Below are positions 52,403 to 63,810 of a stretch of DNA of 64,000 nt, piece by piece (the stretch's first letter is position 1; every line of letters starts with the position of its first letter). The translations under genes were made by a program, and so were the position numbers. The DNA is from Crossaster papposus (Eukaryota; Echinodermata; Asteroidea; Velatida; Solasteridae): the NCBI GenBank assembly GCA_037893245.1, contig JBAIAA010000396.1, forward strand, positions 1,178,001-1,242,000. The letters are read 5' to 3'. The notes under the pieces were generated by a model. It made no database searches, was not told where the DNA came from, and worked only from the letters and a program-made list of their open reading frames with translations.

Positions 52403-52630
52403 CATGTAGACACTACCACACTGAGGGCATACTTGTCATTCTATCCAATGGAGGACACTTGAGTTTGTGTGAATTACACCTATCAAAGTGAGGACACTAC
52501 ACTAAATTGCTGGTTGTCCATTGGTTTCATATTGATGTGCATTCTAAAGTCATCATTGCGATTGCAAATTCTAAATAGTCAAGTACTCTGACGCATCCGT
52601 ACATGTATGTGAACTGACGAAACACCCTGC
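52403..52630. other. Island margin downstream of the recombinase gene, with three short GAGGACAC-type repeats
   Basis: This is non-satellite sequence 3' of the gene on the minus strand. Three short related motifs occur at 52,423 (GAGGGCAT), 52,451 (GAGGACAC) and 52,490 (GAGGACAC), each preceded by a similar A/C-rich octamer. I see no canonical AATAAA or ATTAAA on the minus strand between the stop codon and the satellite, so the 3' end and polyadenylation site of the gene are undefined. The first bases (ACGCATA) may still be a remnant of the monomer, which would put the array edge at about 52,402 rather than 52,395. Confidence 0.5.
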
Positions 52631-52884
52631 TTAGCTTTGATGAAGCTTCATTTTGTTCCGACAAAAGTCTTTGATGTTCCTCCAGCTTCGTGTCTGCAGT
52701 GCCACAAGACAGGATGTTTCGATGTCTCGTTTGCCAGGAAGCTTCTTCAGCAGAAAGAATTTCTGCAAACCCTTCGTAACGTCTCCCTTCTCCTCGGCAG
52801 TCCAGGGACGACGTTTCACTCGTCTCGAGTTGTTCAGAGATGCCAGACTTCCAGATGGAACACTGATAGGAGCCTGTCGAGTAC
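52631..52884 (-). other. Last coding exon: Myb/SANT-like C-terminal module
   Basis: It starts at acceptor GACATTAG|GTACTC and runs 83 codons to TAA (52633-52631). After a Ser/Pro-rich lead it reads KRRPWTAEEKGDV, a long helical stretch, then TRSWRNIKDFCRNKM. This is the two-tryptophan pattern (W-T-x-E-E near the start, then R-S-W-x-x-I-K) of Myb/SANT-like DNA- or histone-binding helices, preceded by a basic patch. The module is short for a full SANT domain plus flanks, so I call it SANT-like. Confidence 0.72.
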
Positions 52885-55800
52885 CTAATGTCAAATAGGA
52901 AACAAGTCGATATAAAACACAGATATTTAGGCACTTTTAATTCAGACAGCCCGATAGCCAGATGAACAAACAAATGGACAGACAGACAATTGTTTTTTTA
53001 AAGACAGTCCGACTTAACCAGTTTGCGCCAGGATTATTTTAACATCGCCGAGCCCACAGGCGGGATTATTTTTTACGAAACTCGATCTGAAGCGGGTTCA
53101 GGCTGATAGTGCCGGGAAGCACACCCACGCATTTCCGGCCTTGCGCGCTGCTGACATACATTTCCGAACTTGAACTTGGCAGGTTTATGCGTCATTCGTT
53201 TTGAATTTTGGAAAATGTTTGCGTTTATATACGTCATCCGGCGCGAACTGGTTAAAATACAGACACATAAAAGCCTAAACTTACTGTTTTCACTGGGCAC
53301 ATCACAGGAATTGTCACTGCTGTTATCGCTGTCCTCGTCACTAGTGAAGCCTTCTGCAAGTCACAAAGAGCAGTTTTTGTTAGATTAATGCACACATACC
53401 CGACAGTTGGTTGTTGTCCTGCATGTAAATTCAGAAAAGTGGACTCAACTCTTGTCAAATTTCTGTGGTCTGTTTCTTTCTATTTTTCTCTATTTCTCTT
53501 TCTTGTTCTGTAATGCAGAAGCAATAGCAAAAGAAATGCACACAAACACGTATACCATTTGTTATCATATATTGTGAACTGATAACAAAATGTTATTTCT
53601 TGCATTTCTTTCGCTGTTGAAGATGTATTAGTGAATAGTAATTACTGATCAAATATTTTTCAACAAAAGCAATAATTAATGTCTTTCTTTTGCTGTTGAG
53701 TAAATAATTTAAAACAACTGTGTCCTTACCACCAGTGACATGCAGTTCATCCAGGGATTTGCCCTGCTGGGATGGCAAGTTTCCCCTCTCCAAGCTGAGA
53801 AAAAGTATAGAAAGTTTGGTGACCCTCTGCACAGTATCTGGCAACTGGTAGTATTCACGATGGACACGCAAATCATGACCCATGAAGTTTGCAAGTGTTT
53901 CAAGTTGATGTTCCTTCAAGGCAAGAATTTGCGATGCGGTTGCCAGGTGCTTACGAAGTTTTGTAGACCGGATGCTGGCAGCATTGTCAAGGCCGGCCAT
54001 GTCTGCGTACACTCTTATACAGTCACATCCTCTTATATGACCTGTACCTCCATAAGAACATCGTGCAAACAAGTAGGTGTTGTCGTGGGCGACTCCAGCT
54101 TCATTTCTCTTCGCAATCAGAGCACTCAACCACGCCACCACCTCATTGCTGAGAAGCACAGGAACAGTTCGACCCCTCTTGCCAACTATTTCGACAACTC
54201 TGAACATCTTGCACAGATGCCGTTCAAGATCAGTCAGCAGGCATTCCCCGTTGACACTAGCTGTTGTGTGCTTCTGAAAGTCTTCTAGTTTCATTTTTGA
54301 TACCTCCCCTTGCCTTCTGCGGTTGAACATAATAAGGTGGCACAGTGCGACTTCATTCAATCTCTTCCAAGCTGGTCCAATTTGTTCGCCCCGAGCATCC
54401 TGGACAAGTTCCACTTCTCTGTTGCCAGCTTCATAGAGGAACGCCGACATTTTCACAACATCAGCATTTGTCGGCAGAATTTTAGGTTGGTTGCGCTTTC
54501 CTTGGTACAGTGTTCTGTGTGCATGGGTGGATACACGGTCTCGCCAGGTCAGTTCGCACAACTGCAGAAATTCTTCAGCGTGTTGGGCTTTTTGCTTTTG
54601 GCCAGACTCTAGAGCATTTCCTTTAAGTATGAGTGCACACTTCTTGATGGAATGTCCAATCTTTAAAGCTAGAGACGGAACATCATACAACTGCTTGTCT
54701 TCATTAAAGCCAGCAATACCGTGAATAGCCTTGATGATATCATTCAGGTAGTGGGGGTGGACAAATAATTCAAGTGATGCATTTGGCTGGTGTGTATTCT
54801 TGCGGAGTTGTATGACAAGACGACCCAATTCCCGTATCTTGTTTCGGATGTAGCCATGTTGATCTACATCGTGCCCGAGTTTCGCGTATTCCCGCTTGGC
54901 TACTTCCACAATCAAAGTGTCATTCTTGGCCAGCAGAGTCACCTCATCTCTCTTCATCGGAATAAGAACCTGGTTCAACTGGAAAGACACACCGACAGGT
55001 GGAGGCTTTAACAAATCACTCTTGTGAGCAACACATCTACGCAGAGGAGTTGTGGTAGTGCTACCATGCGAGTGTGCAGGGAGTGCAGGTTTCAGTGGGC
55101 ACTGGTGACGCCAGAGATCACTTCGCACATAATAGCCATAACAATATATGCACGGTCCGTATGCATGTGGAGATACCTTATGATTAGGCCTATATCCTAC
55201 AATAAGTGCACCCCGGCCTTTCCGAAGGACTTGGCAATTGTGCCTATGATTACCAACATTGCGGATTTTCCACAGAAGTATCTTACGGGCACTTGGGTTG
55301 GTCTCAGACGCAATCTCTACAACTTCGCTCTCTTCTTTGTGACATGACTGGAGATGACGGGGCAACTTAGATTGAGGTACTTCACAGAAAAAGCAAAAGT
55401 GTTTCTTGTCCCATTTCCTGTGCCCACTTTCATTGCTGGTCTCCATGACCGTTATGTGACCGGTCTCAGTAGCCTCGGTTGATGATCTCTGTGACTCGGC
55501 ACTTGAGGCTTCATATGGAGCAGGACAAACGGCAGGTCCTGTACCAGAATCAGCCTGTGGGCCATCATCCCAACTGGAACTGCTTTGTAGACTGTCTGAA
55601 CCATTTAAGTGCGAACTCGAGAAAAGCGTATGGGCCACCTGGCATAGAAATCAAATCAAAATCACATTTAATTTTAAACAAATAACAATTTCTTTGGGGA
55701 GGGGTGGGAGGGCGAAGGGAGGGGTGGGTGTGTGGGGGAGGGGTGGGTGTGTGGGGGGGGGGGGGGGGGGGGGGGTGAAGGGGGGGGGGGATGGTGCTTG

Positions 55801-58234
55801 CCAAAAACACTTTATTTACAAATTTGTTTCTGGCTTCTGGGCACCCACAGTGAATATTTGATAGGGTTCAGAAAACAAGTTCACTAATGAATCAAAATCT
55901 TACTACTTTCTATGTTGCCGAATGCAGAAAACGTTTATGATTTAGAACGAGTGGAAAAAAAAAAAAACACCACTGTTATTTTCTTTAGGGGTAGACGCAT
56001 ATGCCTAATTGCCTCGGACTAGTTGCCCCTCTGAAGGAGAGGGAGTTGGGAGGAGGGGTGGGAGGGGTGGGGTGTGGGGTGGGGGGGGGGGGGTGAAGGG
56101 GGGGGGGGGGGGGTGAAGGGGGGGGGGGGTGCTTGCAAAAAAAACCACTTGATTTATAAATTTGTTTCTGGCTTCTGGGCACCCAGAGTGAATATTTGGG
56201 TTCTGAAAACAAGTTGAGTGTGTGTGAATTACCTCATATGGATCAGGACAAACGGCAGGTCCTGTACCAGAATCAGCCTGTGGGCCATCATCCAAACTGG
56301 AACTGCTTTGTAGACTGTCTGAACCATTTAAGTGCGGACTCAAGAAACTCGGATGGGCCACCTGGCATAGAAATCAAATCAAAATCACATTTAATTTTAA
56401 ACAAATAACAATTTCTTTGGGGAGGGGTGGGAGGGCGAGGGGAGGGGTGGGTGTGTGGGGGAGGGGTGAGTTTGTATTGACCGGCAATCGTGGTCGTCGG
56501 ACAAAAGAATTGGGAGTCAAACAATGGGTCCACGATTGACAAAACGTCCACGATCTTTTCCCGTGTACAAATCCTATGGCGATCATCAAAAAACGTTAGA
56601 GTATAAACAAAAGAGGGAAGACGGTCGGACAATACCCCGTCCACGATCGAAGGCCTCTACACACTTGTGTGGGTGTGTGTGGGGGGGGGGGGGGGGGGGG
56701 GTGGTGAAGGGGGGGGGGGGGGGATGGTGCTTGCCAAAAACACTTTATTTACAAATTTGTTTCTGGCTTCTGGGCACCCACAGTGAATATTTGATAGGGT
56801 TCAGAAAACAAGTTCACTAATGAATCAAAATCTTACTACTTTCTATGTTGCCGAATGCAGAAAACGTTTATGATTTAGAACGAGTGGAAAAAACCAAAAC
56901 ACCACTGTTATTTTCTTTAGGGGTAGACGCATATGCCTAATTGCCTCGGACTAGTTGCCCCTCTGAAGGAGAGGGAGTTGGGAGGAGGGGTGGGAGGGGT
57001 GGGGTGTGGGGTGGGGGGGGGGGGGGGGGGTGAAGGGGGGGGGGGTGCTTGGAAAAAAAACACTTGATTTATAAATTTGTTTCTGGCTTCTGGGCACCCA
57101 GAGTGAATATTTGGGTTCTGAAAACAAGTTGAGTGTGTGTGAATTACCTCATATGGATCAGGACAAACGGCAGGTCCTGTACCAGAATCAGCCTGTGGGC
57201 CAGCATCCCAACTGGAACTGCTTTGTAGACTGTCTGAACCATTTAAGTGCGGACTCAAGAAACTCGGATGGGCCACCTGGCATAGAAATCAAATCAAAAT
57301 CACATTTAATTTTAAACAAATAACAATTCCTTTGGGTTATCTCTAAAATATACTATCCATTTTGACACCATCAAAAGCAAAAACATTCGCCCTTGATGTG
57401 CAACTTAACTGACGACATACCGGTATTTATCCTCTTCATAAAAAGATATGTAATTCAAATGAGAATTTGTGTCATGTGCATTGATTATATGACTTCTAAG
57501 ACTTCTAAGGCACTTAGGGAGACACTAAAATGTCTCCTTAAGTGCCACTGTCTCCTTATTACCTAAAAAATTACGCTAGTTTGTCTCCCCAAGTGCCTAT
57601 TTGGAAGAATTACGCATTTCATTTGTATTCTTCCTAACCTGTCTGTTTTTAATTAATGCATTCTATGGTAATTTTCTCACCTGGTGCTCAAATAGGCAGC
57701 GTGTCACACCATCAGTGTATCGGACGCAGTACTTTCCTGATAAGAAAGCCACAAATTCAACTAATTAAACTTTAAAGGGATTACATGCAATTGGGAGTGA
57801 AATGTTGAAAAGTATTTGTTGTTTACAGATCATATACATTTTTGGTTCTGAAAGGGGGGGGGGGGAGGAATCAAGTTTAGAAAAAATGGCATTGTTTATT
57901 TACATGTGGTACATGTCATGGGGGGATGTAAGAGGGTATACAGCTGTCTTAATTTATGTGTGACAAATGGGATTCTACATTATGGATTACATTTCTTACA
58001 TACGGAACCCACAACCCTAATGTGGGTTCACGTTAACGTGAACCCACAAATTACGAGGGCATTCCATTTGTTTTCGTCATATGTCCTTTTAGAGGCTCCG
58101 CACTTACCTTTGGTGAAGGAGATTATTACGGCAGGATACCATGATGAATCTGGAGGCCACAGTGCGATTACGTTCTCCCCTTCATGATGCTGGTGATTTG
58201 TCAAGGTTCCATCAAGACGACTACTTCGTTTCAT
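52631..58234 (-). CDS. Spliced gene: Tudor-like, zinc-finger-like, tyrosine recombinase and SANT-like domain protein
   Basis: I reconstructed this gene from GT-AG junctions on the minus strand. Coding exons are 58234-58108, 57736-57681, 57276-57148, 56361-56233, 55638-53730, 53353-53285 and 52884-52631. The frame is unbroken at every junction (phases 1,0,0,0,1,1), giving 890 residues with all exons, or 804 if the two extra copies of the repeated exon are skipped. Order: Tudor-like module, low-complexity Ser-rich repeats, two Cys/His clusters, a tyrosine recombinase domain, an acidic Ser/Asp linker, and a Myb/SANT-like module ending in TAA. The product is likely nuclear. The recombinase fold suggests DNA binding and possibly strand exchange, while the Tudor and SANT parts suggest chromatin contact. 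It may be a host gene domesticated from a tyrosine-recombinase element, or the coding part of such an element. No stop or frameshift breaks it, but expression is not shown, and an upstream non-coding exon is possible. Confidence 0.8.
53018..53251. mobile_element. 234-bp piggyBac-like MITE with TTAA target duplication
   Basis: TTAA (53014-53017) and TTAA (53252-53255) bracket a 234-bp segment. Its ends are inverted repeats: CCAGTTTGCGCCAGGAT on the left, and the complement of ATCCGGCGCGAACTGG on the right. These agree in all but one substitution and one extra base. TTAA duplication with short terminal inverted repeats is the hallmark of the piggyBac superfamily. It has no coding capacity, so it is non-autonomous. 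It lies in the last intron of the recombinase gene. Confidence 0.8.
53285..53353 (-). other. Coding exon for an acidic Ser/Asp linker
   Basis: This 69-nt exon sits between acceptor CTTGCAG|AAGGC and donor AAAACA|GTAAGT. With split codons at each end it adds an acidic stretch containing TSDEDSDNSSDNSCD, a composition typical of flexible linkers and casein kinase 2 sites. The phase fits both neighbours exactly (1 and 1). Confidence 0.72.
53522..53619. repeat. ~98-bp imperfect palindrome in an intron
   Basis: The outer arms CAATAGCAAAAGAAATGCA (53522-53540) and TGCATTTCTTTCGCTGTTG (53601-53619) pair at 17 of 19 positions. The inner arms CATTTGTTATC (53556-53566) and GATAACAAAATG (53581-53592) pair with one bulge. 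The nested arrangement predicts a long hairpin in the pre-mRNA of the intron between the large exon and the acidic exon. It is either a small MITE remnant or a structured intronic element. A third half-copy (CTTTCTTTTGCTGTTG) lies at about 53,683-53,698. Confidence 0.6.
53730..55638 (-). other. Large coding exon: repeat copy C, zinc-finger-like clusters and tyrosine recombinase domain
   Basis: This exon supplies 636 codons plus one base. It begins at acceptor CTATGCCAG|GTGGCC. The first codon is GTG (Val), not a start, and an in-frame TGA lies only 13-15 bases upstream, so it must be spliced to an upstream exon. Residues 1-43 are a third copy of the repeated exon, fused to what follows. Cys/His clusters lie at C82-x2-C85-x9-H95-x3-C99 and C163-x2-C166-x11-H178-x-C180. 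The recombinase domain spans about 390-620, with box I Arg442 (RQGEVSKMKLEDF), beta-hairpin Lys487 (VGKRGRTVPV), box II Arg562 (LRKHLATAS, with Thr559 where His is usual), His588 (FMGH) and Tyr597. The His588 to Tyr597 spacing of nine equals that in Cre and XerD. The donor is GGTG|GTAAGG. Reading through this donor would add about 45 meaningless residues before a stop. Confidence 0.85.
56233..56361 (-). other. Repeated exon, copy B (129 nt, phase 0-0)
   Basis: Nearly identical to copy A (Leu for Trp and Asp for Ala in the middle), with the same acceptor and donor context. It lies 915 bp from copy A. The surrounding intron sequence is duplicated too. The exon has intact splice sites and an open frame, so it may be a used cassette or alternative exon. 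The sequence alone does not tell whether A, B, or both are spliced in. Confidence 0.6.
56469..56668. other. ~200-bp unrecognised insertion unique to one duplication unit
   Basis: The two G-rich units match up to GGGGAGGGGTGAG, and again from ACACTTGTGTGGGTGTGTG. Between them only this unit carries about 200 bp of ordinary-complexity sequence. It contains a near-repeat of GTCCACGAT (three times, about 56,529, 56,547 and 56,639). The minus-strand frame is open through it, but I recognise no family. It has no clear terminal repeats. Confidence 0.5.
57148..57276 (-). other. Repeated exon, copy A (129 nt, phase 0-0)
   Basis: 43 codons between acceptor CTATGCCAG|GTGGCC and donor ATATGAG|GTAATTC. 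The peptide is Ser/Gly/Pro-rich with a central SDSLQSSSSW stretch and no recognised fold. Its upstream (higher-coordinate) flank passes directly into unique intron sequence, whereas copies B and C are bounded there by a G-rich tract, so copy A is probably the ancestral one. Because the exon is symmetric (129 = 3 x 43), it can be included or skipped without changing frame. Confidence 0.68.
57509..57546. repeat. Near-perfect hairpin (16-bp stem, 6-nt loop) in the second intron
   Basis: GGCACTTAGGGAGACA (57509-57524) and TGTCTCCTTAAGTGCC (57531-57546) pair at 15 of 16 positions around the loop CTAAAA. A further copy of one arm, TGTCTCCCCAAGTGCC, follows at about 57,582-57,597, with a shorter fragment at 57,549-57,557. 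The compact arm-loop-arm plus extra arm looks like a MITE relic or a structured RNA element in the gene's intron. Confidence 0.6.
57681..57736 (-). other. Coding exon 2: second half of the Tudor-like module
   Basis: This 56-nt exon lies between acceptor TTATCAG|GAAAG and donor CACCAG|GTGAGAA. Joined to exon 1 it reads GKYCVRYTDGVTRCLFEHQ. This is the expected continuation of a Tudor fold (K-Y-x-V-x-Y-x-D-G). The seamless join of a half-domain on each side of a 371-bp intron is the best evidence that the gene model is right here. It ends in phase 0, as the next exon requires. Confidence 0.75.
58108..58234 (-). other. Coding exon 1: start codon and first half of the Tudor-like module
   Basis: The start ATG (58234-58232) has A at -3 (AACATGA). 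It is the first ATG in a frame that is closed upstream by TAA at about 58,298-58,300. The exon gives 42 codons plus one base. Residues 19-42 include E-x-E-NVIALW, then SSWYPAVIISF, the usual beginning of a Tudor barrel (small residue, V-x-A-x-W, then W-Y-x-A). The donor AAAG|GTAAGTG is close to consensus. A possible acceptor-like TAG just upstream (about 58,265-58,275) means the exon could extend as 5' UTR or be spliced to a leader exon. Confidence 0.72.
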
Positions 58235-60709: not shown

Positions 60710-62028
60710 TGCACCTCCATCGTTCGTTTCATGCGTCGTTAAATTTTCGTAAACCCATCCCTTTCGCAAAGTGATATGCCTATGTGGCAATACACGTGTA
60801 CATACAAACACATCAGAAAACATGGCTGCGAATGAGGATATTTTTCTCGACATATATCTGAGCTGCAAACCTCAACGTTGTTGGAGAATAAAGAGACATT
60901 CACCACCTCCACATTTGAGCTAACATATCGCCAAAATTCTCAACGGAAGAGACCAAAACTTTGAGACTCATGCGTCAGGACACTGGCGGCATAAGCCTAT
61001 GCGGCAATACACGTGTACACGCATAAACATAAGAAAACATAGTTCGAGAATGAAGAGACACTCGCCAGCTCAACATCTGAGCCACAATATTGCCAAATGT
61101 CTCACTGAAAAAAAAAAAAAAACGGTGAGACCCATGCGTCAGGACACTGGCGGCATAGGCCTATGCGGTAATACACGTGTACATCCATACACATAAGAAA
61201 ACATGGCTGCGAATCAGGATAATTTTGTCGACTTGTATTTGAGCTGCGAGCCTCAACGTTGTTCGAGAATGAAGAGACACTCACCAGTCCGACATCTGAG
61301 CAAAAATATTGCCAAATTTCTCACTAAAAAAAACCCCAACAACTGAGAGACTCATGCCTCAGGATACTGGCGGCGTAGGCCTATGCGGCAATACACGGGT
61401 ACATACATTCACATAAGAAAACATGGCGGCGGATGAGGATAATTTTCTCGACATATATCTGAGCTGCGAGCCTCAACGTTGTTCGAGAATGAAGATACAC
61501 TCACCAGCTCGACATCCGAGCCAAAATATTGCCAAATTTCTCACTGGAAAAATAAACAAACTGAGAGACTCATGCGTCAGGATACTGGCGGCTTAGGCCT
61601 ATGTGGCAGTACACGTGTACATAAATACACATCCAAAAACATGGCTGCGAATGAGGATAATTTTCTCGACATATATCTGAGCTGCTAACATCAACGTTGT
61701 TCGAGAATGAAGAGACATTCACCACCTCCACATCTGAGCTAACATATCGCCCAAATTCTCATCGTTGTTCGAGAATGAAGAGACACTCACCAGCCCGACA
61801 TCTGAGCAAAAATATTGCCAACTTTCTCACTGGAAAAAAACCCAAACGGTGAGACCCATGCGTCAGGACACTGGCGGCATAGGCCTATGCGGTAATACAC
61901 GTGTACATCCATACACATAAGAAAACATGGCTGCGAATCAGGATAATTTTGTCGACTTGTATTTGAGCTGCGAGCCTCAACGTTGTTCGAGAATGAAGAG
62001 ACACTCACCAGTCCAACATCAGTGTGAA

Positions 62029-62261
62029 ATTTGGCAATATTTTGGCTCGGATGTCAAGCTGGTGAGTGTATCTTCATTCTCGAACAACGTTGAGGCTCGC
62101 AGCTCAGATATATGTCGAGAAAATTATCCTCATTCGCAGCCATGTTTTCTGATGTGTATTTATGTACACGTGTATTGCCACAAAGGCCTATGCCGCCAGT
62201 ATCCTACGCAATATTTTGGCTCGGATGTCAAGCTGGTGAGTGTATCTTCATTCTCGAACAA
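62029..62261 (-). repeat. Inverted satellite block
   Basis: From GTGAAATTTGGCAATATTTT the sequence is the reverse complement of the monomer. It runs through one full unit (GAACAACGTTGAGGCTCGC, then the E-box palindrome, then AGGCCTATGCCGCCAGTATCC) and part of another. It then returns to the plus orientation after TCATTCTCGAACAA|AATATTCTC. It is the only inversion I found in about 55 kb of satellite. It creates a long inverted repeat with the neighbouring monomers on each side. Confidence 0.9.
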
Positions 62262-63810
62262 AATATTCTCTGAGCTAAAATATATCTGAGCTGCGAGCCT
62301 CAACGTTGTTCGAGAATGAAGATACACTCACCAGCTCGACATCCGAGCAAACATATTGCCAAATTTCTCACTAAAAAACAAACAAATGAGAGAGTAGGAT
62401 ACTGGCGGCATAGGCCTTTGTGGCAATACACGTGTACATAAATACACATCAGAAAACATGGCTGCGAATGAGGATAATTTTCTCGACATATATCTCAGCT
62501 GCTAACCTCAACGTTGTTCGAGAATAAAGAGACATTCACCACCTCCACATCTGATCTAACATATCGCCAAATGTATCACTGTGAAAAACCCAAGCTGAGA
62601 GACTTATGCGTCAGGATACTGGCGGCATAGGCCTATGTGGCAATACACGTGTACATACATACACATCAGAAAACATGGCTGCGAATGAGGATAATGTTCT
62701 CGACATATATCTGAGCTGCGAACCTCAACGTTGTTCGAGAATGAAGAGACACTCACCAGCTCGACATCCGAGCCACAATATTGCCAAATTTCTCACTAAA
62801 AAACAAACAAATGAGAGACTCATGCGTCAGGATACTGGCGGCATAGGCCTTTGTGGCAATACACGTGTACATAAATACACATCAGAAAACATGGCTGCGA
62901 ATGAGGATAATTTTCTCGACATATATCTGAGCTGCGAACCTCAACGTTGTTCGAGAATGAAGAGACACTCACCAGCTCGACATCCGAGCCACAATATTGC
63001 CAAATTTCTCACTAAAAAACAAACAAATGAGAGACTCATGCGTCAGGATACTGGCGGCATAGGCCTTTGTGGCAATACACGTGTACATACAAACACATCA
63101 GAAAACATGGCTGCGAATGAGGATATTTTTCTCGACATATATCTGAGCTGCGAACCTCAACGTTGTTGGAGAATGAAGAGACATTCACCACCTCCACATC
63201 TGAGCTAACATATCGCCAAAATTCTCACCGGAAGAGACCAAAACTTTGAGACTCATGCGTCAGGACACTGGCGGCATAGGCCTATGTGCCAATACACGTG
63301 TACATACAAACACATCAGAAAACATGGCTGCGAATGAGGATAATGTTCTCGACATATATCTGAGCTGCGAACCTCAACGTTGTTCGAGAATGAAGAGACA
63401 CTCACCAGCTCGACATCCGAGCCAAAATATTGCCAAATTTCTCACTGGAACAAACCTAAACTGAGAGACTCATGCGTCAGGATACTGGCGGCATATGCCT
63501 ATGTGGCAATAGAAGTGTACATACAAACACATCAGAAAACATGGCGGCGAATGAGGATATTTTTCTCGACATATATCTGAGCTGCGAGCCTCAACGTTGT
63601 TCGAGAATGAAGATACACTTACCAGCTCGACATCCGAGCCAAAATATTGCCAAATTTCTCACTGGAACAAACCTAAACTGAGAGACTCATGCGTCATGAT
63701 ACTGGCGGCATAAGCCTATGTGGCAATACACGTGTATATACATACAGATCAGAAAACATGGCGGCGAATGAGGATAATGTTCTCGACATATATCTGAGCT
63801 GCAAACCTCA

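What the first reader, a model, noticed from the sequence alone, without database searches (positions are those of the whole stretch)
52631..58234. Tudor-like + zinc-finger-like + tyrosine recombinase + SANT-like fusion gene
Seen: seven exons joined by consensus GT-AG junctions keep one frame from ATG to TAA and produce a four-module protein. Known: Tudor and SANT modules are chromatin readers or binders. Tyrosine recombinases in animals come from Crypton, DIRS or Ngaro elements, and Crypton-derived domesticated proteins (such as the ZMYM2 group and QRICH1) usually keep a decayed recombinase fold. Inferred: this is a chromatin-targeted recombinase-like protein that I cannot match to a named family. 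It is the strongest candidate in the window for an undescribed system.
Basis: partly seen in the sequence, partly recalled or inferred. Interest (0 to 1): 0.88.

Follow-up and report, generated by a model that had tools for sequence, protein, structure and literature searches.

The report
Starfish recombinase gene with chromatin-reading domain
A probably mobile gene, most likely from a starfish and lying in repetitive DNA, encodes a DNA-cutting-and-joining enzyme of the Xer/Cre type fused to a chromatin-reading domain; it belongs to a widespread animal family that I could not match to any named family.

Summary
On the minus strand seven exons (58234 to 52631) join by GT-AG into an 890-residue frame. 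Exon 5 is a genuine tyrosine recombinase (YR): its model matches XerH, XerA and Cre, and R589, K634, R709, H735 and Y744 are each kept in 119-120 of 121 sequences; the usual HxxR histidine is threonine in 117 of 121. So it is not a decayed ZMYM/QRICH1-type relic. Two zinc fingers precede it. The 'SANT' exon recurs in relatives and models as a Myb/homeodomain-like helical domain, more likely DNA-binding. Exons 1-2 form a PHF20L1-like Tudor spanning their junction.

The gene belongs to a large family in echinoderms, molluscs, a hemichordate, fish and a frog without a Pfam or NCBIfam family of its own. Some relatives carry a KMT5A-type SET (4 of 47) or BRCA1-type BRCT (1 of 47) in the Tudor's place. 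I read it as the recombinase of a Crypton-like DNA transposon with interchangeable chromatin modules, probably inserted in the surrounding 217-bp satellite. Copy number in its own genome could not be tested: the genome search did not complete (19 attempts). Membership of Repbase CryptonV was not testable.

The parts
58108..58234 (-). exon 1: ATG and first half of the PHF20L1-like Tudor
57681..57736 (-). exon 2: second half of the Tudor
   Evidence: Tudor alignment spans the exon 1/2 junction
57148..57276 (-). exon 3: 43-aa linker, near-copy of exon 4 and of the exon-5 start
56233..56361 (-). exon 4: 43-aa linker, near-copy of exon 3 and of the exon-5 start
53730..55638 (-). exon 5: linker, two zinc fingers, core-binding and catalytic domains of the tyrosine recombinase
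55339..55395 (-). zinc finger 1 (C229 C232 H242 H247)
   Evidence: C229 and C232 in 110, H242 in 111, H247 in 116 of 121; the misses are gaps except one Y at C232
55099..55152 (-). zinc finger 2 (C310 C313 H325 C327)
   Evidence: 116-117 of 121, misses are gaps
53794..55035 (-). tyrosine recombinase fold (core-binding plus catalytic domain)
54313..54315 (-). catalytic Arg I, R589
   Evidence: 120 of 121
54178..54180 (-). catalytic Lys, K634
   Evidence: 119 of 121
53953..53964 (-). TxxR: T706 in place of His of HxxR, and Arg II R709
   Evidence: T 117, R 119 of 121
53848..53877 (-). H735 to nucleophile Y744
   Evidence: H 120, Y 119 of 121; nine residues apart
53285..53353 (-). exon 6: acidic linker
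52631..52884 (-). exon 7: Myb/SANT/homeodomain-like helical domain and TAA
52395..60773 (.). unique island inside the 217-bp satellite; candidate extent of the element (left border uncertain, up to 52412)
58021..58048 (.). perfect 28-bp palindrome in intron 1 (can be read as two 11-bp arms and a 6-bp centre); possible recombinase binding site, untested

Best explanation
The gene encodes the recombinase of a YR-only, Crypton-like DNA transposon (or a recent copy of one). Proposed working: the two zinc fingers and the C-terminal Myb/homeodomain-like domain recognise the element's own DNA (inferred); the Xer/Cre-type core cleaves through Y744, aided by R589, K634, R709 and H735, and strand exchange excises or integrates a circular form (inferred from the conserved residues and fold; the Thr for His change leaves the acid/base step open). 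The N-terminal slot holds an interchangeable chromatin module, here a PHF20L1-like Tudor that would read methyl-lysine and tether the complex to certain chromatin, such as the satellite array where this copy lies (inferred). Shown: the open spliced frame, domains, fold, residue conservation, the family and the varying N-terminal modules in predicted proteins. Not shown: mobility, copy number, expression, DNA sites, activity.
For: YR fold with both domains. All six catalytic positions as in the family consensus in 111 of 121, RKRHY in 114 of 121, unlike domesticated DUF3504 proteins, which lost the Tyr and second Arg (PMC3212892, passages). A family of 415 hits over several phyla. A Dissostichus gene model joins parts of two different copies (P0030, my reading). 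Diverged lineages coexist in one species: the three Holothuria rows fall in three starred clades and the three Apostichopus rows in two. The island sits in a satellite with both flanks in the same orientation and nearly the same phase. Eight of the longer ORFs (69-80 aa) of the upstream part gave no Pfam match at E<=0.1, so no reverse transcriptase was seen. N-terminal modules differ: SET 4 of 47, BRCT 1 of 47, Tudor here.
Against: No copy count in the own genome (genome search did not complete). No terminal repeats at the borders and no clean target-site duplication: the flanks overlap by 11-30 nt of satellite, and same orientation with such a phase has roughly a 0.14 chance (my estimate). 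The paralogues could be an old host gene family, and short predicted proteins can be prediction errors. The HxxR His is replaced in the family. Window-specific residues hint that this copy may be decaying: I758 where 92% have K, and C349, I452, I758 occur in 0 of 115, 0 of 119 and 0 of 117 other rows. The SET and BRCT fusions are gene predictions of others.
Confidence: 0.6

Rival explanations
1. A domesticated host gene family: an old YR transposase kept by animals as a catalytically competent chromatin protein, working in programmed rearrangement, satellite maintenance or regulation, with Tudor/SET/BRCT as host modules.
For: Spliced multi-exon gene with a recurring intron position; near-invariant catalytic residues over several phyla; host chromatin domains of specific types.
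Against: Apparently decaying close paralogues in Acanthaster; location inside a satellite array; coexisting diverged lineages fit a mobile element better.
Confidence: 0.25
2. A dead or dying copy of such an element: frames still open by recent age, no function now (this overlaps with the best explanation).
For: Unusual substitutions at 349, 452, 758 not seen in P0001 or the other rows; tandem duplication with poly-G tracts inside the gene.
Against: All seven exons open, splice sites intact, the five standard catalytic residues and the zinc ligands present; the window deviates at 3 of 89 conserved columns, the same number as P0001.
Confidence: 0.3
3. A fragment of a YR retrotransposon (DIRS, PAT or Ngaro) that lost its reverse transcriptase.
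For: Those elements carry YRs, and PAT elements are known from a sea urchin (PMC4157794, passages).
Against: No RT match in the gene or in eight of the longer upstream ORFs; no RT among the families matched by the 47 relatives scanned.
Confidence: 0.04

Closest known systems
Animal Cryptons (CryptonA/CryptonI, Kojima and Jurka 2011)
   Same: YR as the only recombination enzyme, animal hosts including echinoderms and molluscs, no terminal repeats found
   Different: Animal Cryptons have no C-terminal domain and YRs have a R-H-R-Y tetrad (PMC3212892, sections 5 and 8 and passages); here Thr for His, two zinc fingers, a C-terminal Myb-like domain and an N-terminal chromatin module
CryptonV (Repbase Reports 2012, cnidarians)
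   Same: YR DNA transposon in animals; some families insert specifically in microsatellites (PMC8869645, passage)
   Different: Not comparable here: sequences not held. This may be the same lineage already catalogued
DUF3504 genes (ZMYM2/3/4, QRICH1, KCTD1, KIAA1958, WOC)
   Same: YR-derived, several of them in zinc-finger or regulatory proteins
   Different: They lost the catalytic Tyr and second Arg (PMC3212892, passages); here kept. No DUF3504 match at E<=5
XerH / Cre-type recombinases
   Same: Fold of core-binding and catalytic domains; order of catalytic residues (motif knowledge recalled)
   Different: Bacterial or phage, HxxR histidine (recalled), none of the extra modules
PHF20L1/PHF20 Tudor
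   Same: Sequence match E=1.8e-4 over residues 18-58
   Different: Single Tudor in a recombinase, below Pfam gathering cut-offs

Membership tests
Tyrosine recombinase superfamily | core-binding plus catalytic fold | tested here: met
Tyrosine recombinase superfamily | Arg I, Lys, Arg II, His/Trp, Tyr | tested here: met
   119-120 of 121 each
Tyrosine recombinase superfamily | His (or Lys in topoisomerase IB, recalled) of HxxR | tested here: not met
   Thr in 117 of 121, L 2, V 1, M 1
Crypton (CryptonA/I) | YR without reverse transcriptase | tested here: met
   (upstream part: eight of the longer ORFs only)
Crypton (CryptonA/I) | R-H-R-Y tetrad | tested here: not met
   definition from PMC3212892
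Crypton (CryptonA/I) | no C-terminal domain | tested here: not met
   definition from PMC3212892 section 8
Crypton (CryptonA/I) | clusters with Crypton YRs in a tree | not tested
   no Crypton sequence was held
CryptonV | sequence relationship and target-site specificity | not testable with these tools
   Repbase not held; only a passage seen
DUF3504 (ZMYM/QRICH1) | Pfam DUF3504 match and lost catalytic Tyr/Arg II | tested here: not met
DIRS/PAT/Ngaro retrotransposons | reverse transcriptase on the same element | tested here: not met
   (upstream part scanned in eight ORFs of 69-80 aa)
Tudor (royal family) | sequence match to Tudor domains | tested here: met
   the seven best of 19 hits (E 1.8e-4 to 0.041) are PHF20L1 (2), LBR (2) and PHF20 (1) by label and 2ldm, 3p8d, PHF20 as I recall; non-Tudor chains begin at E 0.18. 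Agenet, Tudor_3, LBR_tudor, SGF29_Tudor at E 3e-5 to 3e-4, all below gathering
SANT/Myb domain | three-helix fold with conserved Trp residues | tested here: inconclusive
Mobile element | several dispersed copies with defined ends in the host genome | not testable with these tools
   The genome search unanswered 19 times; indirect signs

The most novel reading that the evidence does not exclude
An undescribed superfamily of animal tyrosine-recombinase transposons with a Thr-for-His active site, whose recombinase carries interchangeable modules of one chromatin pathway: KMT5A-type SET (H4K20 methyl writer), PHF20L1-type Tudor (methyl-lysine reader) and BRCA1-type BRCT. Cutting or insertion would be licensed by H4K20-methyl or damage-marked chromatin, letting the element read, or write, its own target state, for example in satellite heterochromatin. 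I recall no known YR element in which a chromatin writer and a reader take turns at one slot.
Probability: 0.2. Interest if true: 0.85.

Novelty: new variant of a known kind. Interest (0 to 1): 0.6.

Why it matters
The domesticated Crypton YRs of animals described in PMC3212892 are catalytically dead. A large animal family with an intact Xer/Cre-like catalytic set (but for one family-wide change), DNA-binding modules on both sides and a swappable chromatin reader or writer would be a natural model of chromatin-directed recombination and could be useful as a tool. It would also fill in the poorly known diversity of YR elements in animals.

Tried and rejected
Rejected: decayed DUF3504-type relic (catalytic set kept, no DUF3504 match). 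Rejected as likely: YR retrotransposon remnant (no RT seen). Not decided: domesticated gene against mobile element.

Led nowhere: viral contigs and genome-contig scans for relatives (21 and 48 pattern matches, none confirmed), palindrome pattern in viral contigs (none), protein searches restricted to the Tudor (6 candidates, none scored) and to the exon-7 domain (4 candidates, none scored, although local phmmer finds the domain in 18 of 120; so an empty answer there means little). PHROGs, NCBIfam (a library for bacteria and archaea) and Rfam: nothing. A scan of both borders for shared words of 10 or more and for YR-like sites found no pair of sites at the two ends.

Literature for a description of this family: ten searches. 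Among the titles and abstract starts listed (2 to 20 per search, often a capped part of the matches) none described a YR with zinc fingers, Myb-like C-terminus and Tudor/SET/BRCT. The library lacks Repbase Reports and most subscription journals, so this is no proof of novelty.

Full report
Check of the observation. The window is mostly a 217-bp satellite: from 1 to 52,392 and again from about 60,773, with a unique island of about 8.4 kb between. The gene is on the minus strand of that island. With exact splice sites the seven exons total 2673 nt and 890 aa, all introns GT-AG, frame kept. The longest open stretch in the island is 685 codons; the largest in 200 simulated islands was 224.

The family. 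Named relatives in the listing come from starfish, sea cucumbers, a sea urchin, a crinoid, an acorn worm, bivalves, gastropods, fish and a frog. The nearest hit, P0001, is 93% identical over all of exon 5 but unnamed; the closest named ones are crown-of-thorns starfish (75-77%), which is why I take the host to be a starfish (inference). Of 47 relatives scanned (43 with at least 150 residues before the fingers, plus four), 4 have a SET domain and 1 has BRCT. The SET domains of P0117 and P0024 are closest to KMT5A/SET8 among solved structures (E 4e-25 and 4e-17), and all four are related to each other; three of the four have Asn-Asp where the fourth and, as I recall, KMT5A have Asn-His, so activity is uncertain. 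The oyster BRCT pair is closest to BRCA1 (8.6e-22). SET bearers do not form one clade (AU test p 1.9e-48 on 28 chosen rows; the group is defined by its domain, but a first tree had been seen). Thus the slot has changed hands, or an old SET was lost, replaced or missed by gene prediction. No Tudor was found in the 120, many of which look like single-exon predictions that cannot show upstream exons. Internal repeats in the N-terminal linker are common in the family: 20 of 58 with at least 120 residues there, against none of 58 in equally long core pieces; the window's triplicated 43-aa linker fits.

Element or host gene. For an element: near-copies in Acanthaster that look decayed, a gene model fused from two copies in Dissostichus, coexisting diverged lineages, and the position in a satellite whose flanks run in the same direction with nearly matching phase (left ends at model position 129-147, right starts at 118). 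Against: no defined ends, no copy count. Substitutions between the window and P0001 fall mostly outside conserved columns, 1 of 24, hypergeometric P 0.08, not significant.

Possible site. Intron 1 holds a perfect 28-bp palindrome (58021-58048), the longest in the window; 400 simulated islands reached at most 10-bp arms against 14. Arms of 11 and a centre of 6 resemble the general YR site described in PMC3212892 (11-13-bp arms, 6-8-bp centre; passage). It lies inside the gene, not at an island end, so its role is open.

Known and new. Of PMC3212892 I saw the abstract, sections 5 and 8 and passages; of PMC8869645, PMC5753468, PMC3537659, PMC4157794 and PMC3961655 passages only. Animal Cryptons lack a C-terminal domain and YRs have R-H-R-Y; this family differs in both, so I do not file it as CryptonA/I, but it probably works like one. 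CryptonV could not be compared. That Tudor and PHD domains of PHF20L1 read lysine methylation on H4 and H3 respectively is stated in PMC3961655 (passage); the H4K20 link is recalled.

Noticed in passing
window 1-52392 and about 60773-63810: Long 217-bp satellite array; the repeat finder also reports it with a 434-bp period.
   Followed up: partly
window 53014-53255: About 242-bp element with 12-bp inverted ends (11 of 12) and TTAA on both sides in intron 6: looks like a piggyBac-type MITE.
   Followed up: partly
window 57508-57598: About 91-bp stretch with 17-nt inverted ends (94%) in intron 2, MITE-like, with a further partial copy of the end inside.
   Followed up: no
window 58021-58048: Perfect 28-bp palindrome, longest in the window, in intron 1 of the gene.
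   Followed up: partly
window 55511-57390: Tandem duplication of a 0.7-0.9-kb unit carrying the linker exon and poly-G tracts; an assembly error there cannot be excluded.
   Followed up: partly
window 52459-52477, 56214-56232, 57129-57147: A 19-nt sequence after the exon 3/4 donors recurs (95%) downstream of the gene near the island's left border; unexplained.
   Followed up: no
relatives P0024, P0040, P0089, P0117, P0057: KMT5A-type SET (P0117 and P0024 tested, P0040 and P0089 related to them) and BRCA1-type BRCT (P0057) fused to the same recombinase core.
   Followed up: yes
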